Source of the DNA: Physcia stellaris
Lineage: Eukaryota > Ascomycota > Lecanoromycetes > Caliciales > Physciaceae
Length of the DNA: 64,000 nt
Assembly (NCBI GenBank): GCA_018902385.1
Contig: JABSSW010000008.1
Span: 806,001-870,000, forward strand
Reading direction: 5' to 3'
Below the pieces are notes generated by a model that saw only the letters and a list, made by a program, of their open reading frames with translations, was not told the DNA's origin and searched no databases. The translations under genes and the position numbers were made by a program. Below are positions 25,387 through 45,499 of this stretch, one piece after another (position 1 is the first letter of the stretch; each line of letters opens with the position of its first letter).

Positions 25387-27090
25387 TTACCGCGCATCAA
25401 CCATCTGACTACTTCCACTATGGGGCGTCACATCCTCAATCTCGAGCGCCCACTCATCAACCTCCCTAAATTTCTGCGCCAGTCGTCTCATCTCCCCCTT
25501 CACAGCCGCTCCATCCCTGCCATAAGTAGCTCCTCCCTTCACTCTTCCCTTGACTGGAGATGTCTCGCGCTCGTCGCCCTCATCTCCATGATCCTCACTC
25601 CCCTCCCCACCAAAATTAACCTCAACGGCCGTATTCCTTCCATACGTAGCGCTCACTCTACCCTTCTTATTCTTCACCACCGGCGTAGCTTTTACGCCTC
25701 CCACCTTTTTCTTAACATTCCCATTTCCCCGAACTTTCGGCGCGCGGTGGAAGCTTAGTTCGTCTTGGTCGGAGCTGGCTTCTATGTCGCTACTGCTGGG
25801 GATGTCGAATTCCGTGGCCTTGGCACGGACGCGACGGCGTGGGAGCAGGTTTTGGAGGGATGCTGTTGTGAGCGGCTTTAGTGCTGTGCTCTTTGTGGGG
25901 CGCATGGGGGACGGGTGGGAGGAAGTGGAGGATTGGGGGGAGCGGGGCGGGGAGAGCGCGCGGGAAGGTTGGGTTCGGGTTGGTTGTGCTTTCGACTTAA
26001 GGATGTTTTTGGAACGAGGTTTGTTTGCAGTTGTGCTTCGTGCTTGTGGCTGTGGGGTTAGGGGCGGGCTGCTGCTGCGAGGTGGTGCGAGGGTGGAGGT
26101 TCCGAGCTGGGATGAGAGTTGCGTGGATTGGATGACTCGTGGTAATTGCGGTTCTGCGGCATTTTCGTCGGGGGGGATGTCGAACTGGCTCAGCCCTGAG
26201 GAGGTCGATTGATCGGCCGGCGAAAATGCGTGTGAGGGAGATGGTTGGGATGCAGGTACCTGGATCTCAGGCTCGATGGCTGCTAGCTTTCGTTTGCGTG
26301 AGCCAGAGGAAAGCTGTTGAGAGGATGTACGTGCTGAAGAAGCGCTCTTTGCATCTGCCGGTTGTGACTTTGATATCATGAAGGGAGTGGATTCGCCATC
26401 CGGCTGGAAATCGTTGAGGCTGTCTTCGCTATTGCTCTCTTCGGCTTGCTGTTGTTGGTGCTGGGCTGACACCATTGCCAGTAAGCTTGGTTGTCTAGGC
26501 CTTCGCTTGAAGTCCGTCAATATGGATGACTCGCGTCGTTGAGACCCAACTGCTGTCGTGGGCCTTGCAGGCCTTGCACCCATTGCTACATTGCCCACTT
26601 CACCGAGGGCTGCGTCCGAGATTTCAGAGCGCGCTTCTGGCACAGCTAATCCATCACTATTTGTGTTCTTCTGAGTTCCTGGAATCACCCTTCCTTTTGC
26701 TATTTCTCTTTGCTCTTCTTCGGCCTTCTGCTTCGCCAATGCCGCATTTCTCCTCTCCTCCAAAGCTGCAATAGCCTTGGCATGATCACCTTCCCTAGCA
26801 ATCCGCGACAGCGCCGCTCTCTTTCTGCCCCGGATCGGCTTCAGCCGCCCTCCTGCCAGATCCTCTGGTGCTAATGCACCCGACATTGTCGCTTCTTGGG
26901 GCGCGACAACCCGTTGATTCACTCCCGCTTTGCTCTTGCTGATAAGACCTTCGCTATCATCGCTGTTGGTTGTGACGCGTTCAGAAGAGCTGTGAGACGA
27001 CATCTCCGAAGTCGGGTTTGAGGTTGATACTGTTGCGAGGCGTGTGATGGGCTCAGAGGGCGCGACTTTGCTACGCTTCGGGCGAGGCAT
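25387..27090 (-). CDS. Conserved-looking disordered basic protein, function unknown
   Basis: Uninterrupted 567-residue reading frame, ATG at 27088-27090 (MPRPKRSKVAPSEP). Composition is dominated by Ser, Pro, Lys, Arg and Gln, with little predicted structure. There is a short charged helix at about residues 95-130 (RAALSRIAREGDHAKAIAALEE, then AALAKQKAEEEQREIAKGR) that could form a coiled coil. The last part carries two copies of ATYGR (near residues 487 and 525). The protein ends with an ordered-looking motif, MRRLAQKFREVDEWALEIEDV. Several basic clusters (KRSK, RGRKR, GSRKRK) suggest a nuclear location. I do not recognise the family. Confidence 0.7.
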   Translation of the reverse strand: MPRPKRSKVAPSEPITRLATVSTSNPTSEMSSHSSSERVTTNSDDSEGLISKSKAGVNQRVVAPQEATMSGALAPEDLAGGRLKPIRGRKRAALSRIAREGDHAKAIAALEERRNAALAKQKAEEEQREIAKGRVIPGTQKNTNSDGLAVPEARSEISDAALGEVGNVAMGARPARPTTAVGSQRRESSILTDFKRRPRQPSLLAMVSAQHQQQQAEESNSEDSLNDFQPDGESTPFMISKSQPADAKSASSARTSSQQLSSGSRKRKLAAIEPEIQVPASQPSPSHAFSPADQSTSSGLSQFDIPPDENAAEPQLPRVIQSTQLSSQLGTSTLAPPRSSSPPLTPQPQARSTTANKPRSKNILKSKAQPTRTQPSRALSPPRSPQSSTSSHPSPMRPTKSTALKPLTTASLQNLLPRRRVRAKATEFDIPSSSDIEASSDQDELSFHRAPKVRGNGNVKKKVGGVKATPVVKNKKGRVSATYGRNTAVEVNFGGEGSEDHGDEGDERETSPVKGRVKGGATYGRDGAAVKGEMRRLAQKFREVDEWALEIEDVTPHSGSSQMVDAR

Positions 27091-27828
27091 GTTAACCGTT
27101 GTGGTGAAGAAGAACGTTTTAGACAGTGCGCAGATGAGTAGACCAGCTCGAGCGCCTGATCACCGCAGCGCACCGCAACGACAAGATGTATTCGCGTCAG
27201 GTGTAATCGAGGACGCGTCGTCACTTGTATGATGCTCTAAAGGACACTAGAGTATTTCAAGCTTAGTGGTTTGCCTGATCACGGGACTCTTGGATCTAGG
27301 TAGAACACGAGTCCCAGTGAATCCTTTCATATGTACGAGTACCTATTCTGGCCCCATTCACTTCACTCGAGGATTCGTCAGGAGTCAGTATCTACCTTTG
27401 GCTTTGTTTGACCTTTTCTTTCCGTGGAGTTACTGAGCCCTACGGCTCTTAAGCAACATGCAGCAACAAACAGGGGCGACCTTACTTTCATGTCGCCGAT
27501 CAATATCACATACGTATCCCGTGCACTATGTAGTATGGCACTTCGGATCTAGGAAGCACATAACTGGGGACTAAACGGAGCGAGGCGCGGAACTGTCTCT
27601 AAAGCACTCCGCTGGCAGGAACCAAGACAAAGTGCCACTCTCCACCAGTGTATGGGATACAGGTTACATTTCGAGGATCACTAGAACTATCTGAGTGCTG
27701 CTAAAGATGTAGGTATGATATTAATACCCTATATTAAATACATGTGTGAGGAATTGGGGGGTCTTTTGACTTGACATTAGAAATTCCGACTGGTCTCAGA
27801 TATCCACTGAATCCGGCAATGTTCTGCC
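27091..27828. other. Intergenic region before the cluster
   Basis: Holds the promoter of the disordered protein and the 3' region of the MFS gene. No gene, repeat or RNA recognised. It may mark the left border of the polyketide cluster. Confidence 0.45.
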
Positions 27829-29689
27829 TTAGTAAGTCGTCTTGCTAGACTTACGGATTCTTTCTCCAAACTTGTAGAAGACCCACGGAATAGGGCACAA
27901 GGCCAAAGCTATGAAAGCCAGCAAGCTATTGCCCCAGCCAATTCCTAGCGCTTTGTACATCGGCGGCCCAGCCAAGGGTAAGGTCGCGCCAACCACTGAT
28001 CTCAGCACTGCGTTCGCTGCAGTCGCACTAGCGGCATATTCCGTAAAGGCGTCCACAACGTACGTGAGCGTGCAGACCAAAGTAACGAGCAATCCGATTC
28101 CGAAGAATGCGTTGCCAATAATAGGCACGATCCAATGGACCGCGTATTTTGCTGACCAGCCGTACATCAGAAGGCCAATTGGTAAGGTGAACGAAGTCCA
28201 AACCATGGGCAGTAGGCGGTATTCAGGCTTCAGTTCTCCATTGGCAGCTTTTGCGAGCAGCACTTTGTCTGAGAAGACTCCAAAAATGACCAGGCCAATG
28301 ATGTTGCCAACACCCAGACCTAGGTAGACCAATCCTGTTATCCCGATGTTGAAATGGTAATACTCTCCGAACACGACGGGAAATGTTGTGAAAAGCAAGT
28401 AAAGGTAACCATAGGTGACCGCCATGAAAAGTGACAGAAGGAAGATGATGGGAGAAAAGAGCAACATCTTTGCGGGGCGTATCAAAGTATTCCGCCAAAG
28501 TCGGCCGGGCGTGAGACCCTGATCATATCTTGAGCGCAGAGACATATTGCCTGTCTTTTTCTGCAAAGCACGCGTTTTGCGTTCCATGATCACGACTCCG
28601 TAAGTCTCTCGCATGAAGACGAAGTTGACTAGCGTGATAGCGCCCTCCTAAATTCACCTCTTGGTAAGCTTAGTCCGCAGCGAAGAGATCAGGGAGCATG
28701 AAGTATAGCACTAACAATCATCAATAATAACCACATAAGCCATCTCCACCCTTTCGCTCGAGTCAAAAAGCCACCCGCTACTGGTCCAAATATCGGTCCT
28801 AGCGTAGGACCAAGAGCGTATATACCCATATACTTCCCCCGTCGCTCCTGCGGTATTAGATCGGAGATGGTTCCACCGCCAATCGCCAGTGGCGCAGATC
28901 CTGCACAGCCTTGGAGGAATCGCAGTGCAATCTCGCTATTCATGCTGGGAGCCAAAGCACAACCGACGGTAAGGGCCGCAAAGGCTGTATTACAACTATG
29001 ATAGAGTGGCGTTCGACCATAGAGTTCAGATAGCGGTGCAATTACCAGTGGTCCAGCAGCGAAGCCCAGCAAGTATACAGAGACAACCAAAGAGCCGAGC
29101 TCCGCGTTTGTTGACTTAAATTCGGCCAGGATCTGTGGGATACCTGTTGCAAGGATGGAGGAGCCAAGAGGGCTGTTGAAAATGTCCAACGAGAATTAGT
29201 AATGATACTCCTAGTCGTGAAGCGGATGCTGCGGCCAAAGGGATCTAGGACGTGGGAGTAAAAGGAGATTGTAGCTTGCCTGATGAAAGTAATGGCGCTG
29301 ACGAGAAAGATATGTGTCTTTATCTTCCACGGCGGCCAGTTCAACGGATTTGTCGGATCATCCGGACCATCCCAATCAACAACATTTGGGTCGACGGACT
29401 CATCCACTTTCTGTGGTTTCCCGTCATCTGTTGATGGAGAGCGAGAACCATTTATGTTGGCTTCAAGGTCGGTAGGCTTTTCATTGTCGACTTCAGCTGC
29501 ATTTTTTGGAATGCTGTACTTTGTGTCATCGCTCCGTTCGCTTTCAGCTTTTCGCTCACTGTCATGTCGAGACTTCTCAGACGACACGGATACCGCTTTA
29601 GCGGAATGTGCATCATCTACTGCTTTCGCTGAAGTGGTATCAGCGTTGAAGCTCGTAACCGGAGCACTGAAGGACTTGGGGTCCTCCAT
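27829..29689 (-). CDS. MFS transporter, DHA1 multidrug/polyamine type
   Basis: Drug:H+ antiporter-like exporter in the plasma membrane. Exons 29689-29280, 29172-28716 and 28647-27829 give 561 residues. A long hydrophilic N-terminus (about 130 residues) ends in DWDGPDDPTNPLNWPPWK, the typical lead-in of the fungal Tpo1/Flu1 group. Twelve hydrophobic segments follow. Motifs seen: SELYGRTPLYHS (motif A, loop 2-3), LRFLQGCAGSAPLAIGGGTISDL (motif B/C area) and DLIPQERRGKYMGIYALGPTLGPIFGP. The first intron (29279-29173) has a GC donor (AG|GCAAGC) with a normal AG acceptor, the second GT-AG. It is the left member of the cluster and is divergent from the methyltransferase. A role as product exporter is inferred from position. 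Confidence 0.9.
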
Positions 29690-30824
29690 GAGTTGAACAC
29701 TACGACAGTGACCTCAATTACGGTCCAAGCTGGGTAGGCAACAAGTAACAGCAAGACTTGACGGGATCTACACTTAGGCTGCTTCCACACTCAAGTCAGC
29801 GAGGGTGATTCTTGCAAACCGTAGTAAATCTGGGCGAGGACGTTCTGCAAGGTCAAAACATGCGAAATACCCAGAAAATGATCCATGACGAGAGCGATGC
29901 CCAGAGGGATGGTCAACATGGACGACAGCAAGAGTGCAGCTTGTCAATAGGTGCGTCTAAGAGTCATTCGACGCTGCAGAGCATCGTGGCTTGATGGAAG
30001 ACGTGAATGGAAACGACACGGACAGACATTACACCGACTGAGTATCTTTAGGCCGACCAGCAAGATCATCTCTACGCTTCCGCTGCTAGTTGCATATGCA
30101 TGCGAAACATGTCAAAAGATGATTTTGTGGAGATTTCTGAGGAGAGACGCTGAATTGAATCAGGTGTGGCACACTTTTCCTCGCAAGACGTCCAATCACA
30201 TCACCGACGGACGGTCGTCCTCCAGGACCGAACTGAAGCGACGATCACGATATCAGCTGCAGCAATATTACGGAGTACGCTCGTCCGCGTCCTGATAAGG
30301 CACGTCAAGCATGCGGCTACTGGACACTTTATGCAGGGCGCCTCCCCAAGCTTTGGCTAATCCACCTTCACTAGAGGCCGAGCCCGAACCGTTAGGGCCC
30401 GAGCTCAACCCAATCTCTAATTCAACGTGCAGCGCCAGGGGGTCCTTTCGAGCCTGCATCAAAGTCCACATGCAAGGTCCGATCTGCCGGACGTCTCGTC
30501 TGGGACCATGATGACGTACAAGATATGATCTTCAAAATCGACTATTTCACTTCGGCTCCTTAGAAGAGCGAGCACAGCAGCGCCAGCCTCTCTCTCAAGG
30601 AGTCTTCCACATGGAGTTAACGCTTCGATCAAGCCGACAAGACGAACACCTTGGAGATAATGATTGGAGAAGAGCCGACGAGCCGAAGCCTTGGCGACGG
30701 CGAGCTGCTTTCTGGCCATCATGGACATAGATATAACTCCGTGTGAAGCAAGTGCGAAGCAAATGCAAAGCAATTACACCATAACACTCTCAATACAACC
30801 GAATCGTTAACAGTTTCTTCCAAG
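29690..30824. promoter_or_regulatory. Divergent promoter region MFS / methyltransferase
   Basis: The 1.1 kb between divergent start codons. No gene recognised; a short minus-strand open frame around 30459-30773 has no family. At 30213-30230 there is an inverted repeat with CGGTC and GACCG arms around an 8-bp centre, giving CGG-N12-CCG. This is the kind of site bound by Zn2Cys6 regulators of fungal clusters. No such regulator gene lies in the window. Confidence 0.45.
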
Positions 30825-32271
30825 ATGACTTCAGTCGACGCTATTCCCTCACCATTGACCCGCCTAGAGAGTCAGCCTGATGACTTGATGGGCTCCGCTG
30901 ATGTTGACGGTGCATCAGCTCTTCTGGAGGGACACATGCCCGGAAAAGTGCCTGGGTTCAGTGCAGCTACTGAAAACCCGGCGTCCAATGGGACAGAGAA
31001 CACTCCGCAGGTGAATCAGCAAGAAAAGACACTGGATACGACGGAAGCCCCAGCGTCTAATGGGACAGAGAACCATCCACTAGTCAATCAGCAAGCAGAG
31101 GTGCTAGAAACGAACGGGTCAGGGAGCCACCCGGGACCCACGGACGAAATAAAGACCCCTGCAGTGAATGGCGGAGCGGAGCATCCAGCGTCCAATGAAG
31201 GGCAGAGCCAGCCAAATTTCCCTACTGGAACTGAGAAGCCTAGCGTCATTCCTCCGATTCAGCCGGGGGGCAAGAAGAACAACAAAGGAGTTCCTTGGTA
31301 TGACCCCTACCCTGTCCATTGCAGCCCTGCATCATCCCAGCCGTCGATTTCCTACTCCCCTGATCTCGCCTTTGCATACTGATAACGTTAGGTACCACAA
31401 AACACCCACTGACATTGACCCAATCACCCGTAAGCTCCTCGAGAACTACAGTCAAATCCAACCAGACCAAGTAGAGCAGCACGTCATCGCCATCGTAAGT
31501 CTCCAACCCAGTCTTGCCTCCTTTCAGTGCCTATCATTTTACCCCCTTTGCCCTACAAGCCCCCATCCGCTCACCCTGCACCTCCAGCGCGAAAAAGCGT
31601 GGGACGTCTTCCCCTACCCCTGCATCGGCCAGTTCCTCTTCCTAAACCTAACCATCAACCTCTCGCCCTACTACCCCACCCTCGTCTCCCGCCTGCGCGA
31701 CCAAGGCCAAACCATCCTGGACCTAGGCTGCTGCTTCGCGCAAGACGTCCGCAAACTCGTCTCCGATGGCGCGCCCTCCCAAAACATCTACGGCGCCGAC
31801 CTCTACGGCGAATTCATGGACCTCGGCTTCGAGCTCTTCCGCGACCGCAAGACGCTCAAGAGCACCTTCTTCCCGTGTGACATCCTCAACGAGCAGGATC
31901 TCTTGCTCCGCGGCATGAACGGCGAGATGGACATTGTGTACCTGGGGCTCTTCCTGCATCACTTCGATTTCGAGACCTGTGTCTCGGTGTGCGTGCGCAT
32001 CACCAAGATGCTGAAACCGAAACCGGGGTCACTGGTTATGGGCGTGCAGGTGGGTTCGCTGGTGGGCGATACGGTGGGTATCCCGATTCCGAGCGGGGGT
32101 ATTCTGTTCAGACATGATATCCAAAGTCTGGAGCGGGTGTGGAAGGCGGTCGGGGAGAAGACGGGGACGGAGTGGAAGGTTGAGGCGAGGTTGGAGCGTG
32201 GGAAAGGGTTTGGCGAGAAGTGGCAGATTGAGGGGACGAGGAGGCTAGGCTTTGAGATTCATAGGCTGTAG
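30825..32271 (+). CDS. SAM-dependent methyltransferase, AusD/Trt5-like (secondary metabolism)
   Basis: Exons 30825-31297, 31392-31494 and 31588-32271 give 419 residues. The catalytic part starts near residue 155: WDVFPYPCIGQFLFLNLTIN, then the SAM-binding motif I TILDLGCCFAQDVRKLVSDGA, acidic motif YGADLYGEFMDLGFELF, and MDIVYLGLFLHHFDFETCV. This signature is shared with fungal meroterpenoid carboxyl methyltransferases (AusD, Trt5, AdrK), which esterify a carboxylate. The first 150 residues are disordered and contain an imperfect 24-residue repeat (ASNGTEN..., DNA copies starting at 30981 and 31053, a third partial at 31188). This N-terminus is unusual for the family. It sits between the MFS and P450 genes of the cluster, so methylation of the polyketide carboxyl group is the natural inference. 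Confidence 0.88.
30975..31110 (+). repeat. 72-bp imperfect coding tandem repeat
   Basis: Two adjacent copies of a 72-bp unit beginning GCGTCYAATGGGACAGAGAA, in frame, encode two 24-residue blocks in the methyltransferase N-terminus. A degenerate third piece starts at 31188. Confidence 0.7.
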
Positions 32272-33216
32272 ATATGGGGTTATTAGAGGGAATTTTGGAA
32301 TTTTGGAAGAAAGGGTAAGGGAGTTGGGATACTGTTCAGGACTGGAGGCACGGGAGTGGGACGGAGCATCGATGCTGGCATCGGGATGCGGGGCATAGGA
32401 GGATCGAGCACAATGGCTGAGGAGAGGCTGGGGGCGGATGGGGTGATTCAACATCGCGCCATTCGACGACCAAAGAATGTTAAAAAGTCAATGTACGATA
32501 CAAAAAGGTCCACAGTCACAAAAGCCACTCTCTCGCAAATGGAAGACTGCATCGCGCAAAGACAATGAAGATCATCATCATCAACAGTTTTCCAAAACCA
32601 AAACGATGATCAGGACACTCCCAATCGCAGGGTCCTTCCAGAAACCTTCGAATGACAGATTAGGTATGACAGATATGATTTTTTCAAAGGGAGGGTGTGT
32701 AGCAGAGGACTTTCCAAGGAGGGAGGGTGTGTGGCAGACGAACTTTATACTTTCACCGTTAGCTGTCGTGGCGCGAAGGAAGAGGACGATTGGGTGGTAG
32801 ACGGCATCCTAGTCGGATGGGTTAGCTAAGGTGCAGAATCGAGGACCAAAGCGGCTGCAATGTCATGCATCGATTGGTTCCCCACGCGTTCTATCTGGGA
32901 GTGTACGGATGTAGGTCCGCGTGTATGTAGACGTCTACCTCATATTCAACATTATTGAGTGACACGGCGTCAACATGAGGCGCGAGCCAGCAGAGCAAAC
33001 GTCATTGACATTTTCATCATTATTGACATCGGAGCAATCTTGAGCCGACTGTACGCTCGACCTCCATCGCCAATGCCTCTTTTGTAGAATCAGACATACG
33101 TTGCTGCGAGATAAGGTAAGCCCAGTTTGGTGGTTGCATATCCAATTGCAGTTTGCACAATCTCCCACGACGACCCCAAAAGCGTCCCCCTTTGCATGAG
33201 CTGGTAACTCTCGCTA
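32272..33216. other. Convergent intergenic region
   Basis: Between the ends of the methyltransferase (+) and P450 (-). Contains a short direct repeat of GGGAGGGTGTGT about 30 bp apart (near 32690 and 32720). No gene recognised. Confidence 0.5.
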
Positions 33217-34977
33217 CTATCCTCGCTTGACCAGCGACAGATCCACCATCAATGGTTTCTTATCCCACTGGATCCAGCTGTCCTGCTTGTCCCAGTCCTG
33301 GCTCTCGGGGCTAAGCTGCATGTCGAAGCTGAAGAGCATGCGCGCTAGGATAAGGCGCATTTCCAGATATGCGAGGCTAGCGAGCCACGTTCGTCAGCAT
33401 TTCCACCCTGCATTCTTGGGAGAGAGGGGGCAGGAAGAGAGATAAGGGAAAGGAGCGGAAGGGAAAGCTTACTTCCGGCCAATGCAGCTGCGAGGCCCGA
33501 TCGAGAATGGCTGTGAAGCTTCCTTGATGTCAGCCGCGAAATGCTTGTCACCTAGCCAGCGCTCAGGAGCGAAGACGTCTGGGTCGGTGAAGTTGGCGGG
33601 GCTGCGGTGGGCGGCGTGGGTGCTGAACTGCACGTAGGTCTTTATTGCAAAGTCAGCTCCGAGACTAAAATAAGCAGGGTACAACTCACCCCTCCAGGAA
33701 CCCACTTCCCACAGATCGTCGCTCCACACCGTGGTGTAAGGCGTGGAAGTCCCTCAGGGAACGGCGGATACATCCGTAGCCCTTCGGAGACCAGCGACGC
33801 AAGATACGGAAGCCGTTTCACACTCTCAGGCACGATCTCGTCCTCATTGGCAAATGCAGTCCGGATCTCCTCCACGGCCTTCTTCAAAGGCCCAGGGTGT
33901 TTGAGGAGCTGGAAAGTGATGCCGGCTAGGCCAGATGCAGTACTTTCGCTTCCTGCAAGGACGAGCAACGTGGAGTTTGCATAGAGCTCTTGCATTGGCA
34001 TAGCGACGCCGTCTTTGCCTTTGATGATGTAAGAGAGGAAGTCAGGCCGGTCAGTTTTGGAGGCAATGCGGCGGTCGACTTTTTCCATGTTCAGGGTGAA
34101 GACTTTGGCTTGGCGGGCTTTCATCGATTTGGGGATCATGAGTCTGACAAGCTTGTCGAGAGGGGCGAGCTGCTTGCTGGTGGACTGGTGAGTAGGATTT
34201 CTTCAATCGAAGAGGAAATGTATTCACCTGATGTTGACGAATGCGAAGGTCTTGAAGGCATTGAAAACGAGAGCAACCCATTCAGTGAAGCTAGCGGCCT
34301 CGAGACATTTGAAGGGTTCCCCGAAAGCCAGATCGCCAATCAAGTCGAAAGTAGTCCAGATGTACCATTCGAACATGTCGACCGAATTCGAGGTTCCGGG
34401 TGCTTCAACTCGTTCGCGCAATTTGTTGATGAGAAGAGATGTGAAGTGCTGCAGCATATCAGTCTGATCTGACAACGCCTTGTCGGAAAAGGCGGGCAGA
34501 ATCTTGCGGCGGACGCTGCTATGGGCGTCGCCTTCCGAAGTCAAGATGGAGTGAACGCCATTGGTAGCCGGCTGGAAGAATGCTGGATTCTTACGAAAGC
34601 CCTCACCTGGCTGGCGATGGCCATAAATTGTTTTCAATGCTTCCGGATCCGTGTACGAGAGCTCATTGGGAGCCACGCGGACAACAGGACCATACTTCTC
34701 GTGGAGTTCCTGGAAGCGAGGTACAAGCTTCCCGGAGGCCATCCATTGGAGATAAGGGAGCCGAGCAGCGATGAGAAATTTTGGACCGGGATAGCTCTTC
34801 AAGGGATGAAAGTAGAAGTTGTAGAAGATATTCCCTACGCAGTAGACTAGAACCTGATTTCCGGAGCCTCAGTAACTACATAACGAACATGGAATGAGTC
34901 ACTCTACTCACAAGAGAAACAGTTACACCTAGGCCAGCCGCTACTCCACTCAAAGAGAAGTTGGAAAATGTTTGCAT
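33217..34977 (-). CDS. Cytochrome P450, CYP65/isotrichodermin C-15 hydroxylase-like
   Basis: Five exons (34977-34912, 34853-34228, 34176-33690, 33639-33473, 33376-33217) give 501 residues, all phases consistent. The N-terminal membrane anchor runs from MQTFSNFSLSG to NIFYNFYFHPL and is followed by the proline hinge YPGPKF. The I-helix has LVLAGSESTASG, the K-helix EGLRMYPP (ExxR), the PERW motif is DVFAPERWLGD, and the haem loop is FSIGPRSCIGR with the axial Cys. The fourth junction yields CIGRNLAYLEMRLILARM, as expected. Microsomal monooxygenase. In the cluster it could oxidise an aryl methyl group; in the atranorin pathway a P450 takes such a methyl to the aldehyde. An in-frame ATG upstream, at 35046, could lengthen the N-terminus. 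Confidence 0.92.
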
Positions 34978-37334
34978 CTTGCTCGTAAGATCGATGCTTC
35001 GCAGGTTCAAGGGGATCTCAACACCTTTCAAACGCTCAAATGCCATGATAGTGAAGAGTAACCTACTCAACAGCAATGAAACATTCAAGACAAGACCTTA
35101 CTGTAGATTTGACAGTCTCCGTGAGTGTTGATTTCAGATGATGTGGTGAGATATGGAAAGTATTGCATGACATGGGTCAGTACCGAATGAGAGCTGTAAA
35201 GGAGTCTAGCTAGAAATCATTGGGTCATTGAACATCTGGCTTGACATCCCGAAAGGCCGAGCACAGCTTGCTATCTACATTGGGCGTTTCTTTCGGTGTC
35301 TGCTGCATGCAAGACGTATTCAAGGGAGTCACTAGTCCATGATCCCGGCAAGCATGTGGATCTTGATTCCAGCACGGCGCGAGAGTGGAGCTAGAGATGC
35401 AGAGACACTAGCATATGCGAGATCTTCCTGCAGAAGAGACCAGTGAACAAGGAACGAGGACAAGGCCCAAGGTAATCCGGGTGTCTTCGGAAGGGGACAC
35501 ATTTTGGCGACTGTTCTTCAACTTCGGCGCTAGCGGTATCTGAAGGGCGATGTGTCACTGGAGCGATCTGTGGCTGCTCCTATCTCAAGCCTCATTCAGT
35601 CTGAAAAGGTACCGTTGCGGCAGGATCTATGCAGGTTGGATGTGCATTTGGCAAAGCTATCAACTCGAGAGCATATCCAACGGCTACCACACAGATCGCT
35701 TCGGAGGCAGCAGATCCCTTTATCCTTCCGCGATCATATGCAGTTGTCTATGCAAGATGTTAGTGGTGTGATTAGGATAATTTCTCATGAGATGAATGGC
35801 TTATGGAAGTGTCCGAGCAGTAAGCTGTGCGTCTATCGGACAGTATCACGGCTAAGCCTGTATTCTGCAGGGTCATCTTGCAGCTCTGGGTCGAGTAGGT
35901 GATTCATATCTTCCGGTAGGATCCAAGTCCGATGGAGAGATGATAACTGGTAGCGAGGGTAGCTCTAGGGCTGTTCTCGCTAAGGGTTCACTAGCGCAAT
36001 ACACTAGTCACTAGCGCCCGGAATCCAGCCCGAGGAGCTTTGATTGGTCGCAGCCAATTGTAGCGCGCCTCGAGCTTCAACTGCACCTCTTGATCGCCAC
36101 CGCGTCTTGATCTCCATCAACCCCAACACACCTGGGCTGCACTCACTTCTCTCACCTCGAAGGCTGGAAGAAGGCTTTGACCTCTCGCTACCGTTATCCT
36201 GGCTCGTATACTCAGTATGCATCAAACGGGCTAAAGCGAATGGGCGCTCTTCTCTTGACACTCTGTCATGCATCCTCGGACAGGCCTCCGAAGCTTCTTT
36301 TATCTGATGCAACCACCAAGACTGCAACCATCAGGATCCCCAGAGATCTCCAGCCTGGCCCTGTCATCTAGCATCAAGCCAGCCGTCTTTGACAGCGCGT
36401 GTGTATCAGTCCAATTTCTCGTCTAGCTTTCGCCACCAAGGGGACCTGCTTTGGTTGCTTTGCTCTGTTGACACTAACATCTATCTCAGCAGTTGACCAT
36501 CTGTTACACAGCAGCGCAACGGACGATGTAGATCTCAATCGCTTGCCTCGTTCTCTATAACCGGTTCGCTTGGACGGGGTTTCAGGGTGATTCTATGCTG
36601 GCGTCACCACTTCCTCCAGATGGAATACTCGGGATACCTTTCTCGTATCTTGCTGATGCTGGCGTCACCAGCCCCCACCTCAGAGCTCTCGAATACGGAA
36701 GGATCTTGACGAGACTTCTAGCTAATGCAAGTCTTTACTGCAAGCCGTCTCTTCTGCGCGTTCCACATGGTTGACGCCTGCCTATCTCACAGTGTCCTTA
36801 TACCAAGACTAAGAATCATGACCACCCAAAGCTCCCAACCGACTGAGTTTGGTTTAGGAACTCCAAAAGCGACCAACAGATTTCACACTTCATCAAATAC
36901 CCCTAATCGTCAACATCATTATGCTATGACTATGGAAACCAATATTTATTGCGTCTTTCGGGTGTGGCAGTCAATGCAAGAATGACTTTAGAGGTGGTCG
37001 ATCTATCTAGTAAACAATCTAGATTTCCCCTAAAACCAAGACCCTTGATTCGATTCATCATGCAGGTCCGATTTGCAATTCGATGAAGTTTCTGTCACTA
37101 ACGATATTCACCTGCACATTCACGTCCTGAAGTTAGGCAGATTATCGAGCGGATAAGACCTTGATAAAGGGCTGTAATTTCCCAATCCTCGACCTCCTCT
37201 TCTCTGCATCGGTCTTTCAGTTTAAGCATTGAGCCTTAGGCGTCGAGGAAGTTTCAACACCTCGCTGACCACAACCCTGCCCACCTCCTTGATATTGTTG
37301 CCTTTCATCTCAACAATAGCACCCCTCCTAGTCT
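34978..37334. promoter_or_regulatory. Divergent promoter region P450 / PKS
   Basis: A 2.4-kb stretch between divergent start codons, long for this genome. No gene is supported: open frames near 35550-35900 and 36004-36327 lack any family resemblance. A perfect 15-bp direct repeat ATGCTGGCGTCACCA occurs at 36595-36609 and 36656-36670. CACTAGCGC occurs twice near 35990-36018. Confidence 0.45.
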
Positions 37335-37398
37335 CTGACAGTACTACCTGCCACACCACTGACAGTACTACCTGCGACACCACTGACAGCACTACCTC
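37335..37398 (+). repeat. 24-bp tandem repeat in the PKS 5' leader
   Basis: Units start CTGACAGTACTACCTG at 37335 and 37359, with a third, shorter copy (CTGACAGCACTACCT) at 37383. The array ends about 10 bp before the PKS start codon at 37408, so it is probably transcribed as leader. Confidence 0.85.
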
Positions 37399-37407
37399 TT
37401 GTTCAGC

Positions 37408-40400
37408 ATGGCTTACAATCACGAGGAGCTGCCTTCAATGGCGGTTTTCAGCCCACAAAGCAAGGCTCCAAAGGAGAGCTATTTGGATGAACTGCGATCA
37501 TACTTGTGCGGAAAAGCAGAACTTCGGCCTTTGCTTGACGGCATTGACCATTTGCCCCAGATTTGGGCGATTTTTGCTCAACATAATAGCAGCATTGCAG
37601 AATTGACCCAAGGAGCAAGGTATACCCAGGCACTCTCTGACTGGGTCATAAAGGGGAACTCGTCTAGCATTTCCAATGTTATGTCTGGCATACTATCATT
37701 GCCTCTTTTGACTATCATCCAAGTCGTCCAGTACTTCCAGTTCCTGGAAGTTAAGAGACTACGCCATTGCGACTTCATGCATCGACTCAGAGATAGAGGT
37801 GGTATTCAAGGCTACTGCGGCGGTCTTATGCCGGCTATTGCCATTGCTTGTAAGTACTGTTTGGTTTCCTCCTCTCTCTCGGAAACGCATCCAGAAGAAT
37901 TCTGCAAGACAAGAAAATTATGGTTCATTGAAGCCACTTTTATTTCACCGAATTCCCCTCACAGCGGCAGTGCTAATTTCGCCTTTCCGCAGGCTCTGCG
38001 AACGAATCCGAAGTTGTTACCAACGCTGTTAAGGCAATGTCCATTGCCTTGGGCGTTGGGGCTTACGGCGAGCTTGGGGACGATGAAAACGAAACTGGCC
38101 CTACCACAATTGTGGTGCGCCTTAAATACGAAGGGCAAGGGAAAGATCTCGTAAAAGACTTTGCTGATGTAAGTTATCGACACAAGGGTATCCGGCTCTC
38201 GTTCCACTAACATTGTTGTAGGCACATATATCAGCAATTACGGACCCAAAGACCGTCAGCATTGTAGGGTCAGCGAAATCCCTTGCAGAAATCCAAGCCC
38301 GAGTAAAGTCTAGTGGGATGCAAACCCAAGCTATGCATCTGCGCGGGAAAGTGCATAATCCAGAGAACGCCGATTTAGCGCAGGAGCTATGCATGCTATG
38401 CGACAAGCACGAGGAACTTCGGCTACCTGACGCTTCGCGTCTGACAGCTCCATTAAGGTCTAATAAATCAGGAGCCAAGCTTACAGAGGGGTCACTTACA
38501 CATGAGGCAATCGAAACCATTCTCGCTTCATGTTGTCAATGGTATGACCTTCTCAATGGAGTGGCCAAAGATCTAGAAAGCACCGGAACGCAATCACACC
38601 TTTTCGCATCATTCGGCATTGGGGACTGCATTCCCCTGACGCCATTCCACCAAGCAGGGCTGCAGATTACAAAACTAGATGTTCTCTCTTTCATCAAGGC
38701 TATGATGCCGCCCGTCTTACCCATATCCGACCACAACCACCAGTATGCATATCCCACTGACGCGGTTGCTGTGGTCGGAATGGCATGTCGCCTACCGGGT
38801 GCCGACACCATGGAAGAACTTTGGGACCTGATCTCATCTGGTCGATCAACCGTAAGACCTGTCCCAGAAGATCGCACGGATATTGCCAACAGTTATCGAG
38901 CCATGCAAGATCAGAAATGGGCGGCTAAGCAGCAATGGTGGGGCAATTTCATCTCTGATATTGCTGGCTTTGATCACGCCTTCTTCCGCATGAGCCCGCG
39001 AGAATCTGCATCGATGGATCCGCAGCAACGCGTACTTCTGGAGACAGCATATCAAGCCATGGAGTCCAGTGGCTACCTCGGATCACATCGACGCGAATCA
39101 GGAGATCCCGTAGGGGTCTTTTTGGGAGCCAGTTTCGTAGAATACCTTGACAACACGTCTGCAAACCCACCAACAGCGTATACCTCTACTGGCACCATCC
39201 GAGCATTTTTGAGTGGAAAGATAAGCTACCATTTTGGCTGGACGGGACCATCGGAAATACTCGATACAGCATGCTCGTCTTCCCTGGTTGCCATCAATAG
39301 AGCTTGCAAGGCGATCCAGAATGGGGAGTGCGAGATGGCGCTCAGTGGTGGAGTGAATCTTATCACTGGTATCCACAATTATCTGGACCTCGCAAAGGCA
39401 GGCTTTCTGAGTCCCACCGGACAATGCAAGCCGTTCGATGCCTCAGCGGATGGCTATTGTCGATCAGAAGGTGCAGGACTCGTTGTCCTCAAACGTCTGA
39501 ATCAAGCCATGAGCGATGGTGATCAGATCCTTGGCGTTATACCTGGGGCCAGTACCAACCAGGGTGGTCTCAGTCCATCTCTTACAATTCCGCACAGCGC
39601 AGCCCAGGTAAAATTGTACCAAAATATCCTCCATCAGGCGGGCATGAAACCTGAGCAGGTAACTTATTGTGAGACACACGGCACTGGCACTCAGGCCGGC
39701 GATCCTCTTGAGATAGCAAGCGTACGCGAAGTCTTTGGCGTTCCACAAAGACAGAGCTCCATGGACATAGGCTCAATCAAAGGTAACATTGGCCACTGCG
39801 AGACTGCTGCCGGAGTGGCTGGTCTTCTCAAAGCGTTACTCATGGTCAACAAAGCCGCAATACCACCTCTGGCAAGCCACCAGAGCTTGAATCCGAAGAT
39901 CCCTGCTCTCGAACCTGACAAGCTCTGCATATCGAAGACTTTAAGTGATTGGGATGTCTCGCCAAGAGCCGCCCTGGTGAACAGCTACGGTGCGGCGGGA
40001 AGTAACTCTGCTGTCCTCTTATGTCAGGGTCCCGACAGTGACAAGGGTTCTTCCGCTGGTCGACCAGCTACCCAGTCTGCCTATCCCATCATCCTCAGTG
40101 CAGCATCCAAGACGAGCCTATTAGCCAATGCTACAAACCTGAGGGAATATCTAAATAAGACAACCCCTAAACGAGCGATTGCGGACATTGCATTTACTCT
40201 CGCCGAGAGACGAAAGCGCCATCAAATACAATGGATATCCACGGCGTCGGACACCGATGACTTAATTAGATCTCTCGGGTCTTTGCAGGATCTATCAGAT
40301 GCTCCGCAACCGAAGCAAGTAGTATTGGCATTTTCTGGCCAAAGCCGACAATCCATTGGACTCAATAAAGATTGGTATGACGCCTTTCCTCTCTTCCGAC

Positions 40401-43400
40401 ACCATGTCGAGACATGCGACAACTTGTTGCAGAAAAGTGGGTTCCCTTCTTGCAAGTCTACAATATTTGACAAGGAGCCTGCTCGAGATGTAATACCGCT
40501 CCAGTGTGCAATGTTTGCTGTCCAGTACGCATCTGCCATGTCTTGGATCGCGTGCGGCCTTCAAGTGGCAGCAGTCATTGGGCACAGCTTTGGCGAACTG
40601 ACAGCACTGGCAGTATCAGGCATACTGTCGCTGGGAGATGCTCTAAGGCTCGTTGCTACTCGAGCCACGTTGATGCAGTCGAAGTGGGGTCCTCATAGAG
40701 GAACCATGCTTCTCATCAGTGCGAGTGCTGAAATGGTAGGGCAAATAATCGCAGGGAACAAAGACGTCGAAATTGCTTGTCACAATGCGCCAACAAGTCA
40801 GATTGTCGTTGGTACGCAGAGTGCTATCTCTGAGGTTGAGAAGCTCCTGGAGAACAAAACTGAGTATCGCGGCATCCAGAGCAAGCGACTCGATGTCACG
40901 CACGGCTTCCATTCGCAATTCACGGAACCATTACTTGATGATCTTTCCAAGACAGCTCAGACCCTAGTCTTCCACGAGCCTCGGATACCGCTCGAATCCT
41001 GCACTCTCGAGGAGCTCAGCCATGTGGGATCAGGTCGTATCGCACAACACACCCGAGAGCCAGTCTGTTTCTATCAAGCCGTACGCCGGCTAGAGCAGCG
41101 ACTTGGCTCATGCGTGTGGTTAGAGGCTGGTTTCGATTCTCCGATCATCTCAATGGCCAAGAGGGCGGTCGAGTCTCCCGAGAAACACAAGTTCCAAGAC
41201 ATGAAGAGTCCTAACGGCAACACTACCGCTGTTTCCCTCACTAACGCAACAATGGACCTTTGGCGCAATGGTGTTACTTCTTCTTACTGGGGCTTCCATC
41301 CATTGCAAGAAATGAAGACGAAGCAAGTTTGGCTGCCGCCCTATCACTTTGACCGCACTTCTCATTGGATGCCTTACACCGATCATGCTTTGGAGATGAG
41401 CAAAGTTCAAGCTGTCATTGGAAATTCCACGCCTTTGATTGCGGAGTCTAACCAGCCGCTACGCCTCGTGGAGCCCCGTGTCAAGCCAGACGAAGAAGGG
41501 CAATATACTATGAACACCCAAGCTCGACGCTACACGGACATCGTGTCCGGTCATGCTGTAGTGAACAGACCACTGTGTCCTGCAGCCATGTATATGGAGT
41601 GCGCAATAATGGCCGCACAACTGTCAATAGGCCCATTCGAAGGCCAGGCTCCGTGGTTTGAGAACCTGACTTTCGAGGCACCGCTTGGAGTGGACAGTGA
41701 CCGTGACACCAGTGTTGTAGTGAAAAAGAATGATTCCAATCAAAGGTGGTCGTTCACTGCCTCAAGCGTCAACAAGGCCGACGCAAAGCGGAAACCGGTG
41801 TTGCACGCAAAAGGAGATTTTGGCTTCACCCCAACAACTCAGCTGCATCGATACGAAAGGCTGGTGACTGACCGCATGAGGCACCTGGAGCAAGGCGAAA
41901 CTGAAACGCTTCGAGCAAAACGAGCCTACGGACTGTTCTCGCGGATTGTTCGCTACGCGGAGCTCTTGAAGGGAATCTCATCAATCACTCTAGGCGCATT
42001 AGAAGCATCCGCAGTTATCGATGTACCGCCTGGCGCCAGTACTCAAGACAGCCTGGCCACGGGGTTGTGTGACTGCATCGCTCTTGACGCATTCATCCAA
42101 GTGGTTGGCCTATTGATCAATTCTAGTGAGCATTGTGCTGAAGATGAAGTATTTGTCGCCACCGGGTAGGTTCTCTAATTCAGCTTCTCCCCTCCCTAGC
42201 TCCCCAGGACATTGAGTGGAAACTCAATGGTCTTTATGCCCATGACACATATCCTAGAGCTTCCAGCGCTGCTCTGACGTTGGAAATGCTAACATTGCGA
42301 TTTACGATAGGGTCGAGAATTTCTCAATGTCTTTGGCTTGTGACTTTGATCGCTGTAAAGCGTGGACCGTTTTTGCGATGTACACTCCAACGGGCAACGG
42401 CAAAGCAATGGGAGATGTGTTCGTCCTCACTAGGGACAATGTCCTTGTCATGACAATCATGGGTGTCCAATTCACCAAACTCCCTATCGCCAGGTTGGAG
42501 AAGATGTTGGATTCAGCCAATCCCAAAGCTCGTGAGAAACCAACCTTGAAACCAATCCAGTCAGACGTCATAGCTTCCTCCAGCAGTAGCTCCAGTCTAG
42601 ACCGGAGCCAGGATGAGAGCGAGGAAGATAGCTTGGGATCTCCAATCAGCAGCGCCACTACGATCGACGACGAGCCAGAGACGTCTACCGATAACGGCGC
42701 TGTGAAGAGACTCAAGGCTCTCATCGCATCATACGTCGGGATTGCGGAAGATAATATCCTTGATGATTCAAACATCGCAGAGCTTGGGGTTGACTCTCTT
42801 GCTGCTACAGAACTAGCTGATGAGATTACCAATGACTTTTCCAAAGAAGTCGATGGCGGAGACCTTCCCATGATGACCTTTGGCGAGCTATGCACCCTTG
42901 TGGCCCCTCAGGCAGTTGCCAAGGTTACTAAAGCCAAGAAGAGCGCTTCCTCTAAACCCAAAGTCGAAGCTAGTCTCAGTTCCATACCGAATCAACCACT
43001 CAGTGGAGCCGAGAACTCAAAGGCTACGGCAGAGCCTCCGTCGAGACCAACACTGGACATACCCGATACTTCCGTTGTACAAGCTGATCCTGTTCAAGTC
43101 CTGCGCCAGTGCGATTCCACGTTCCAGATATCAGCGGATAATCTTGGATTCAGCAACTATTGGACAGCGGTGGCCCCCAAGCAGAACGAGTTAGTTCTGG
43201 CATACATTGGCGAGGAATTCAAGAAATTGAAAGTCGACCTTTGGACCATCAAGGCTGGAACAGTCATTCCAGCTATTAATCATCTTCCAAAGCACGCGAA
43301 AGTTGTTCAGAGGCTGTGGGATATCCTTTCGGATCATGGCATCGTCTACAGCTACGAATCTTCAAAGATACGGTCCAGCAAGCCGCTCCCAACTACCTCC

Positions 43401-45499
43401 GCCTCCACCCTTCTAAATGAGGTTAACGCCTTGTTCCCAAAATTCGCCAACGAGAATCGCCTTATGTCAGTCACAGCTCCTCACTTTGCGGATGGCTTGA
43501 TGGGAAAGACTGATCATGTTGGGCTACTATTTGGAAACCAACATGGTCAGGACTGTCTGAACGACTTCTACAACAACTCGCCACAGTTAGCCGTAATGAC
43601 CGATCATCTACTCAGCTTCTTCAATCAGCTCCTTAAAGGAACCACATTGAAAGGCCCCCTCAGAATCCTCGAGGTTGGTGGCGGCTTCGGAGGCACCACA
43701 AAGAGATTGGCAGAGACATTGGAAAGATTAGGTGTACCTGTCGAGTATACCTTCACAGATATTTCCTCCATGCTAGTGAAGGAAGCAAGGAAGAAATTTG
43801 CCAAACATCCCTGGATGGAATTCCAGTCACTCAACCTCGAGAAAGATGTCCCAGGGTCTCTTCAAGGCAAGTACGACATCGCAATTGGGACCAATGTTGT
43901 GCATGCCACGTCAAACATTGTGACTTCTACGAAACGGATGCGAAGCCTATTAAGGGAAGGTGGCTTCATCGTCTTATCCGAAGTCACCCGAATTGTGGAC
44001 TGGTACGACTTAGTCTACGGGCTCCTTGACGGCTGGTGGGCCTTTAAAGATTCCAGGACATATCCTCTGCAGCCTGCAGATGATTGGGTTAAAGATTTGA
44101 AGGAAGCAGGTTTCGAGACTGTGTCATACTCGAAGGGGGATACTGAGGAGTCGAATACTCAACAGCTCATCATCGGCTCCACAAAACCAAGCCAAGTATT
44201 ACCCACTAGCGGGCCTCCGAATATCAGACTAAACCAGTCGTACAGAACTAAGACGGTGCCCTACAAGATTGTCGACGACACGGAGATTCTAGCAGATATA
44301 TTTTTTCCAGTGGGGCAGGCACCCGCTGAAGCCATGCCCATAGGTAGGCCCATATCCTGACCCGTAATTAGCACGCATGCGCTGACCCATAGTCTAGCCC
44401 TCATGATCCACGGTGGTGGTTTCATGACACTCTCCAAGACCGCCATTAGGCCTTACCAAACTCAGTTCCTGCTGGACAACGGTTACTTGCCTGTCAGTAT
44501 CGACTTCCGACTATGCCCTGAAATCGATCTCATCGCTGGCCCGATGACCGATGTCCGAGACGCTCTCAGCTGGGTGCGAGAAAAGCTGCCTGGAATCGCC
44601 CTGTCCCACGGTGTCAAATTGGACACAACGAATGTTATCGCCGTTGGCTGGTCCACTGGTGGTCACTTGGCCATGACGACTGCGTGGACATGCAAAGAGA
44701 TCGGACAAGAGCCGCCCGCTGCAATTCTCAGCTTCTACGGTCCGACCGATTTCCAGTCTGAAGGTACTTTCCACTTGTCTTTTACTCCTCATGCAAAATA
44801 TCTCCGCAGCAGTTAAACGATGCCCCTTTCGCATACAACAGCTAACGACTACCATAGACATCGACCGTAGACGAGCTGAGCAATACCCAGAGCGAAGCAT
44901 GTCCTTCGAACGCATCCGGAAATCTCTACCCACGAAACCGGTAAGGCCTCCCTGGTCCCCCCCCTAGTCTCCATCAATGCCCAACTTCTCCATCCTTCAA
45001 ATTGTCCACTCCCAACTAACCAACCCCTTCCCTACAGATAACATCCTACAACTCCCCCACCGGCACCGACAGCACAAACCTAGGCTGGGTCCGCCCCGGC
45101 GACCCCCGCTCCGAGCTCGTCCTCTCGCTCTTCAAAGAATCCCACGGCCTGCGCGTAATGCTCAACGGCCTCTCCGAGACCGCGCTGTCGACCCCTCCGT
45201 CCTCGCAGAGGATAGCCCAGATCAGCCCGATGGCACAGCTCAAGGCGGGTAACTACAACGTGCCGACATTCATCATCCACGGCGACCGAGACGAGATCGC
45301 GCCGTTTGGAGACAGTGAGAAGTTTATGCAGGAGTTGAAGGGGAGGGGCGTGAAGGGGGCGTTGGCGAAGGTCAAGGGTGCGAGGCATATCCATGATTTG
45401 GCGCTGAGACCTGAGAAGGAGGGGTGGAGGGATGGCGTTGGGGTGGGTTATGAGTTTGTTTTTGGGGTTGTTGGGAAGGCTAATGGTGGGCGTGCTTAG
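37408..45499 (+). CDS. Non-reducing polyketide synthase SAT-KS-AT-PT-ACP-CMeT-esterase
   Basis: Seven exons (37408-37849, 37993-38168, 38222-42165, 42311-44343, 44398-44763, 44858-44940, 45038-45499) give 2501 residues with consistent phases. Domains and active sites: SAT with GYCGGLMPA (Cys137); KS from about 382 with DTACSSS (Cys557) and THGTGTQAGDP; AT with GHSFGE (Ser995); PT with SGHAVVN (His1317) and LDAF (about Asp1495); one ACP with GVDSLA (Ser1683); CMeT with LEVGGGFGGTTKRL (about 1975); and a C-terminal alpha/beta-hydrolase with HGGGF, GWSTGG (Ser2284), HGDRDE and a late His (ARHIHD). No reductive domain is present, so it makes an aromatic polyketide. The order and C-methyltransferase fit enzymes making 3-methylorsellinic or dimethylorsellinic acid (AusA-like) and lichen depside synthases such as Atr1. 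The hydrolase would release or join the units. Confidence 0.95.

What the first reader, a model, noticed from the sequence alone, without database searches (positions are those of the whole stretch)
27829..45499. Four-gene polyketide cluster resembling the lichen atranorin locus
MFS transporter, AusD/Trt5-like methyltransferase, P450 and a SAT-KS-AT-PT-ACP-CMeT-esterase NR-PKS lie together and alternate in strand (-,+,-,+). Published atranorin clusters of lichen fungi combine a C-methylating NR-PKS (Atr1), a P450 (Atr2) and an O-methyltransferase (Atr3), with a transporter nearby. The same chemistry (3-methylorsellinic depside, methyl to aldehyde, carboxyl ester) can be read from these genes. 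Product identity is inference. No prenyltransferase, FMO or local regulator is visible, which argues against a meroterpenoid.
Basis: partly seen in the sequence, partly recalled or inferred. Interest (0 to 1): 0.75.

Follow-up and report, generated by a model that had tools for sequence, protein, structure and literature searches.

The report
Lichen-type atranorin gene cluster
Four neighbouring fungal genes match, in kind and order, the published set that makes the common lichen compound atranorin, so this is very probably another copy of a known pathway and not a new one.

Summary
Window 27829-45499 holds four intact, intron-containing genes: an MFS transporter (-), a Trt5-type methyltransferase (+), a P450 (-) and a SAT-KS-AT-PT-ACP-CMeT-TE non-reducing PKS (+). 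Kind and order match the experimentally reconstructed atranorin core atr4-atr3-atr2-atr1 (PMC8262933, Table 1). Sizes are close for three: PKS 2,518 aa in the preferred model (published 2,513), P450 about 521 (508), MFS about 561 (549). The methyltransferase is longer (419 against 346). Searches found no UbiA prenyltransferase, flavin monooxygenase or Zn2Cys6 regulator in the window. Of four related methyltransferase loci found in the genome, only this one has a PKS beside it. The one other NR-PKS with a CMeT domain is 31-37% identical over most of its length. An atr-type cluster making atranorin, or a close beta-orcinol depside, is most likely. Two things are not shown: no Atr1, AusA or MpaC sequence was within reach, so the KS/PT tree could not be run; and no chemistry is known. 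The cluster sits in another place than the published one (next to TFIIE-alpha; TFIIH p47 is on another contig), and the methyltransferase has a long repetitive N-terminus. Ordinary; a new member of a known kind.

The parts
27829..29689 (-). MFS transporter, atr4-like, 3 exons, 560 or 561 aa (published Atr4: 549 aa)
   Evidence: MFS_1 hits in two exons; gene model, first intron GC-AG
30825..32271 (+). SAM-dependent O-methyltransferase, atr3-like, 3 exons, 419 aa in the preferred model (published Atr3: 346 aa)
   Evidence: gene models; Methyltransf_25 below cut-off; three related loci in the same genome
30969..31112 (+). two copies of a 72-nt direct repeat (75% identical) in the N-terminal extension of the methyltransferase
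   Evidence: family D1
33217..35046 (-). cytochrome P450, atr2-like, 5 exons, 517-524 aa by splice variant (published Atr2: 508 aa), haem motif FSIGPRSCIG
   Evidence: Pfam p450 in two exons; gene models
37408..45499 (+). non-reducing PKS SAT-KS-AT-PT-ACP-CMeT-TE, atr1-like, 7 exons, 2,518 aa in the preferred model (published Atr1: 2,513 aa in Cladonia rangiferina, 2,500 in Stereocaulon alpinum)
   Evidence: gene models; domains
38759..39874 (+). KS domain
   Evidence: PF00109 + PF02801
40331..41185 (+). AT domain
   Evidence: PF00698
41480..42160 (+). PT (product template) domain, first part; continues past the intron
   Evidence: PF21089, TIGR04532 84 bits, under cut-off
42708..42893 (+). 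single ACP
   Evidence: PF00550
43110..44126 (+). C-methyltransferase domain
   Evidence: PF18558, PF08242, PF13489; 259 bits to the citrinin PKS CMeT structure 5mpt
44398..45499 (+). terminal esterase/thioesterase-type alpha/beta hydrolase, 3 exons
   Evidence: PF20434, PF07859, PF00326
29690..30824 (.). shared 5' region of the divergent MFS/methyltransferase pair
   Evidence: gene models; no Pfam match in its ORFs scanned
35047..37407 (.). shared 5' region of the divergent P450/PKS pair
   Evidence: gene models; no Pfam match in its ORFs scanned

Best explanation
This is most likely an orthologue of the lichen atr cluster, making atranorin. The NR-PKS makes two 3-methylorsellinate units and joins them into the depside 4-O-demethylbarbatic acid, the P450 oxidises a ring methyl to an aldehyde, the methyltransferase esterifies the free carboxyl, and the MFS protein probably exports the product. 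The genes, their order and their intactness are shown here; orthology and each enzymatic step are inferred from the published reconstruction with the Stereocaulon alpinum genes.
For: Four adjacent genes in the published order (against PMC8262933 Table 1); the ten other ORFs of at least 100 aa inside the cluster that were scanned have no Pfam match. The PKS domain string is the same, with one ACP as published for PKS23 (PMC9146135, section 27). The preferred PKS model is 5 aa longer than Atr1 of C. rangiferina. All four genes are open with expected motifs. Of four related methyltransferase loci, the three others have no PKS match over 40 bits in the six 10-kb stretches fetched around them. Two places in the genome carry the CMeT-associated HTH_51 domain, this one and contig 10. 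No UbiA, Zn_clus, FAD_binding_3 or FMO-like match fell on contig 8 (for FAD_binding_3 only 19 of 56 candidates were scored).
Against: No direct sequence comparison with Atr1-4 was possible. The methyltransferase is about 70 aa longer than published Atr3 through a repetitive N-terminus. The setting differs: TFIIH p47, next to atr4 in C. rangiferina, is on contig 70 here, and the gene next to the PKS is TFIIE alpha instead of the published phosphotransferase and reducing PKS; contig 8 has one KS match in all. The last exon has a Peptidase_S9 match, which PMC9146135 calls only sporadic in group IX. The organism and its chemistry are unknown.
Confidence: 0.85

Rival explanations
1. An atr-like cluster whose enzymes have drifted to make another beta-orcinol depside or monomer (for example a baeomycesic-, barbatic- or methyl haematommate-type product).
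For: Atr3 showed relaxed specificity: baeomycesic acid appeared in the expression host (PMC8262933). PMC12711211 reports atranorin-type clusters that differ in sequence and gene content and may encode variants (passage). The methyltransferase here has an unusual N-terminus.
Against: All four core genes are kept, in order and open; in PMC8262933 that set was found, among 30 genomes, only in atranorin producers.
Confidence: 0.1
2. A 3,5-dimethylorsellinate meroterpenoid cluster (austinol/terretonin type).
For: Same PKS domain string and a methyltransferase of the Trt5/AusD kind (family recalled; PMC8262933 gives 37% identity of Atr3 to Trt5).
Against: No UbiA match on contig 8 (10 in the genome); no FAD_binding_3 or FMO-like match there; no terpene cyclase named by Pfam among 49 distinct window ORFs scanned.
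Confidence: 0.03
3. A methylphloroacetophenone/usnic acid-type PKS plus P450.
For: CMeT NR-PKS divergently next to a P450.
Against: A carboxyl methyltransferase has no role there (recalled chemistry). Contig 10 has another CMeT NR-PKS with a neighbouring P450 that fits that pair better; it is 31-37% identical to this PKS over most of its length and 52% over a 126-residue KS stretch.
Confidence: 0.02

Closest known systems
Atranorin cluster atr1-atr4 (PKS23 family, NR-PKS group IX) of Cladonia rangiferina and Stereocaulon alpinum, PMC8262933
   Same: Kind of genes, gene order, PKS domain string with one ACP, sizes of PKS, P450 and MFS
   Different: Methyltransferase 419 against 346 aa; other flanking genes on both sides. 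Sequence identity not tested.
Putative atranorin cluster of Bacidia rubella, PMC9146135
   Same: Same four kinds of genes, reported there as organised like C. rangiferina
   Different: Sequence could not be compared here
Austinol/terretonin-type DMOA clusters (AusA/Trt4, AusD/Trt5)
   Same: PKS architecture and methyltransferase kind (recalled)
   Different: No prenyltransferase or FAD monooxygenase found here

Membership tests
atr (atranorin) cluster | Four syntenic core genes atr1-atr4 | tested here: met
   MFS, OMT, P450 and NR-PKS adjacent in the order atr4-atr3-atr2-atr1 (against Table 1 of PMC8262933). Tested by kind and order, not by sequence identity.
atr (atranorin) cluster | Atr1 domain string SAT-KS-AT-PT-ACP-MT-TE with one ACP, about 2,500 aa | tested here: met
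   SAT is just under Pfam's cut-off but carries GYCGG; PT is under NCBIfam's cut-off; length depends on the splice model (2,495-2,518 aa)
atr (atranorin) cluster | Methyltransferase homologous to Trt5 (about 37% identity) | not testable with these tools
   no Trt5 sequence at hand; PDB search of the 223-aa core gave no hit at E 0.1; NCBIfam gave none
atr (atranorin) cluster | KS/PT in NR-PKS group IX, PKS23 clade | not testable with these tools
   scans of genome contigs and viral contigs found no relative; no fungal reference collection was held
atr (atranorin) cluster | PKS alone makes 4-O-demethylbarbatic acid; with P450 and OMT makes atranorin | not testable with these tools
   needs expression
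atr (atranorin) cluster | Strand of each gene as in the published cluster | not tested
   shown only in figures, which were not held
DMOA meroterpenoid cluster | UbiA-type prenyltransferase in the cluster | tested here: not met
   10 UbiA matches in the genome, none on contig 8
DMOA meroterpenoid cluster | FAD-dependent epoxidase in the cluster | tested here: not met
   19 FAD_binding_3 (19 of 56 candidates scored) and 11 FMO-like matches, none on contig 8; none among 49 window ORFs scanned

The most novel reading that the evidence does not exclude
A relocated atr cluster, outside the chromosomal setting published for Cladonia, in which a methyltransferase with a grown repetitive N-terminus has changed the ester-forming step, so that the product is an undescribed beta-orcinol depside.
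Probability: 0.07. Interest if true: 0.4.

Novelty: new member of a known kind. Interest (0 to 1): 0.2.

Why it matters
It adds one more genome with what looks like an intact atr core, set among housekeeping genes in a place different from the published one. That helps to ask whether the core moves as a unit or is transferred between lineages, a question raised for Bacidia in PMC9146135 (passage). By itself it opens no new chemistry.

Tried and rejected
Reference sequences: one scan of genome contigs and one of viral contigs with the KS-AT-PT exon, and one of viral contigs with the methyltransferase, gave no relatives, so no KS/PT tree with named groups was possible. PDB searches gave distant PKSs, among them fungal CTB1 and norsolorinic acid synthase (117 matches, best 60 shown), and the citrinin CMeT. 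That CMeT scores alike against this PKS (259 bits) and the contig-10 PKS (279 bits), so it does not separate the groups. Closest paralogue: the contig-31 PKS, picked for a 52%-identical KS fragment, proved about 25% identical over its long exon (44% over one KS piece) and shows two ACP-like stretches in its translation; dropped. Co-regulation: the two divergent upstream regions share 12 ten-mers, 3 eleven-mers and 0 twelve-mers, against means of 4.93, 1.195 and 0.335 and maxima of 14, 6 and 4 in 200 shuffles that kept base composition only; I take this as no evidence for a shared site. Chloroatranorin halogenase: 2 matches in the genome, none on contig 8. Of 17 stretches asked for (15 around PKS matches, 2 beside the window), one was fetched later and 16 never, so the DNA-level PKS comparison covers part of the genome's PKSs. 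The whole-genome ranking scored 35 of 80 candidates. One splice-site choice per intron was preferred by eye where several were open.
Full report
The finding describes real genes. In 27829-45499 I could build four complete gene models: an MFS transporter on the minus strand (29689-27829, 560 or 561 aa), a methyltransferase on the plus strand (30825-32271, 419 aa preferred, 415-436 aa by variant), a P450 on the minus strand (35046-33217, 517-524 aa by variant) and a non-reducing PKS on the plus strand (37408-45499, 7 exons, 2,518 aa preferred, 2,495-2,518 aa by variant). All are open, with short introns, and motifs expected of each PKS domain and of a P450 are present (motif meanings recalled). 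The genes form two divergent pairs, with the methyltransferase and the P450 convergent in the middle. Ten further ORFs inside the cluster were scanned and have no Pfam match.

The PKS carries SAT, KS, AT, PT, one ACP, a CMeT with its HTH_51 domain, and a terminal alpha/beta hydrolase with a Peptidase_S9 match in the last exon. SAT is just below the Pfam cut-off (20.3 against 22.8 bits). The PT scores 84 bits with the NCBIfam model (cut-off 168), against 122 for the contig-10 CMeT PKS and 199 for the contig-31 PKS. A low score might fit the NR-PKS groups with a CMeT, but that is inference, and the window's PT was scored without the part beyond the intron.

The published atranorin core of Cladonia rangiferina (PMC8262933; outline, Results, one Discussion and one Methods section read) runs MFS atr4 (549 aa), OMT atr3 (346 aa), P450 atr2 (508 aa), NR-PKS atr1 (2,513 aa, SAT-KS-AT-PT-ACP-MT-TE). 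Seven of 15 clusters with an Atr3-like OMT had the four syntenic genes, all in atranorin producers. Expression of atr1, atr2 and atr3 in Ascochyta rabiei gave atranorin. The window has the same four kinds of genes in the same order. PMC9146135 (passages, section 27 and tables) adds that PKS23 enzymes have one ACP, that group IX enzymes lack the NAD domain seen after CMeT in groups VI and VII and always have an 'ADH' domain (not spelled out in what I read), that Peptidase S9 is only sporadic there, and that Bacidia rubella has the same four genes. Here one ACP is met, no NAD-type domain was matched, and a Peptidase_S9 match is present.

How unusual is the combination in this genome? It is 43.97 Mb in 147 contigs, unnamed and with no relatives held. 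The methyltransferase has three related loci, 37-42% identical. A tblastn with the whole PKS gave no match over 40 bits in the six 10-kb stretches around them, so of the four only the window copy is beside a PKS; a P450 and an Abhydrolase_3 protein lie near the contig-7 copy. HTH_51 occurs at two places, here and on contig 10. The long matching stretches of other PKSs are 31-35% identical to the KS-AT-PT exon, with shorter KS fragments up to 52% (35 of 80 candidates scored). The contig-10 CMeT PKS is 31-37% identical over most of its length and 52% over a 126-residue KS stretch. So no close relative of this PKS was found in its own genome. The best P450 match is 44% identical (one exon). The best MFS match is 54% over the 272-aa exon (contig 24), while a contig-46 copy has pieces of 54% and 72%.

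The surroundings look like housekeeping genes. On the left are a deubiquitinase, DUF3712 pieces, a ubiquinol-cytochrome c chaperone, TIP41, a protein kinase, an amino-acid-kinase/PUA protein that looks like glutamate 5-kinase, and, next to the MFS, a 590-aa low-complexity frame without Pfam match. On the right are TFIIE alpha (PDB match; no Pfam match in that exon), a tRNA pseudouridine synthase, a CAF1-type nuclease, a NOC3-like protein, a peptidase M24 and a KRE9-like piece. UbiA (10 matches), Zn_clus (65), FAD_binding_3 (19) and FMO-like (11) matches exist in the genome, none on contig 8. These searches go exon by exon and list scored candidates only (19 of 56 for FAD_binding_3), so they are strong but not complete evidence of absence; 49 distinct window ORFs scanned with Pfam show none either. 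In C. rangiferina the TFIIH p47 gene is the neighbour of atr4; here the only Ssl1 match is on contig 70. The core therefore appears to sit in another chromosomal place.

The methyltransferase differs most from the published protein. Before the conserved core it has about 150 residues with a 72-nt tandem repeat, while the contig-37 relative has about 20 residues before the same point in its translation. The start could be a later Met, which would give about 382 aa; RNA data would decide.

Mechanism, as inferred from PMC8262933: the PKS makes and joins two 3-methylorsellinate units; the P450 oxidises the C-9 methyl to an aldehyde; the methyltransferase makes the methyl ester; the transporter may export. 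Nothing here shows these steps directly. The tree that would place the PKS in group IX could not be run: prokaryote and viral scans gave no relatives, and no fungal references were held. Five searches of the paper library were used; three other papers were seen as passages only (PMC10582450, PMC12711211, PMC9964704).

This is a further instance of a known, experimentally supported cluster type. Interest 0.2.

Noticed in passing
L022/L023 (G000 contig 10, about 155-169 kb): The only other NR-PKS with an HTH_51/CMeT domain found in the genome, with an esterase-type end and a P450 next to it on the other strand; the arrangement recalls the usnic-acid PKS/P450 pair (recalled, not tested).
   Followed up: partly
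G000 contig 10, 557480-557926 and 563303-566251: A flavin-halogenase match (25.7 bits, cut-off 21) about 5.4 kb from a PKS, perhaps a chlorinated polyketide cluster.
   Followed up: no
window 30825-31297: Methyltransferase N-terminus is low-complexity and internally repeated (SNGTEN...VNQQ), unlike the contig-37 relative.
   Followed up: partly
L021:3932-8841: A P450 and an Abhydrolase_3 protein near the contig-7 methyltransferase relative, without a PKS match in the fetched stretches.
   Followed up: no
L046 (G000 contig 31): A PKS whose translation shows two ACP-like stretches in tandem and a thioesterase-like end, of the kind linked to orcinol depsides (read by eye and recalled; PT model 199 bits).
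   Followed up: no
window 25387-27159, minus strand: A 590-aa low-complexity open frame next to the transporter with no Pfam match.
   Followed up: no
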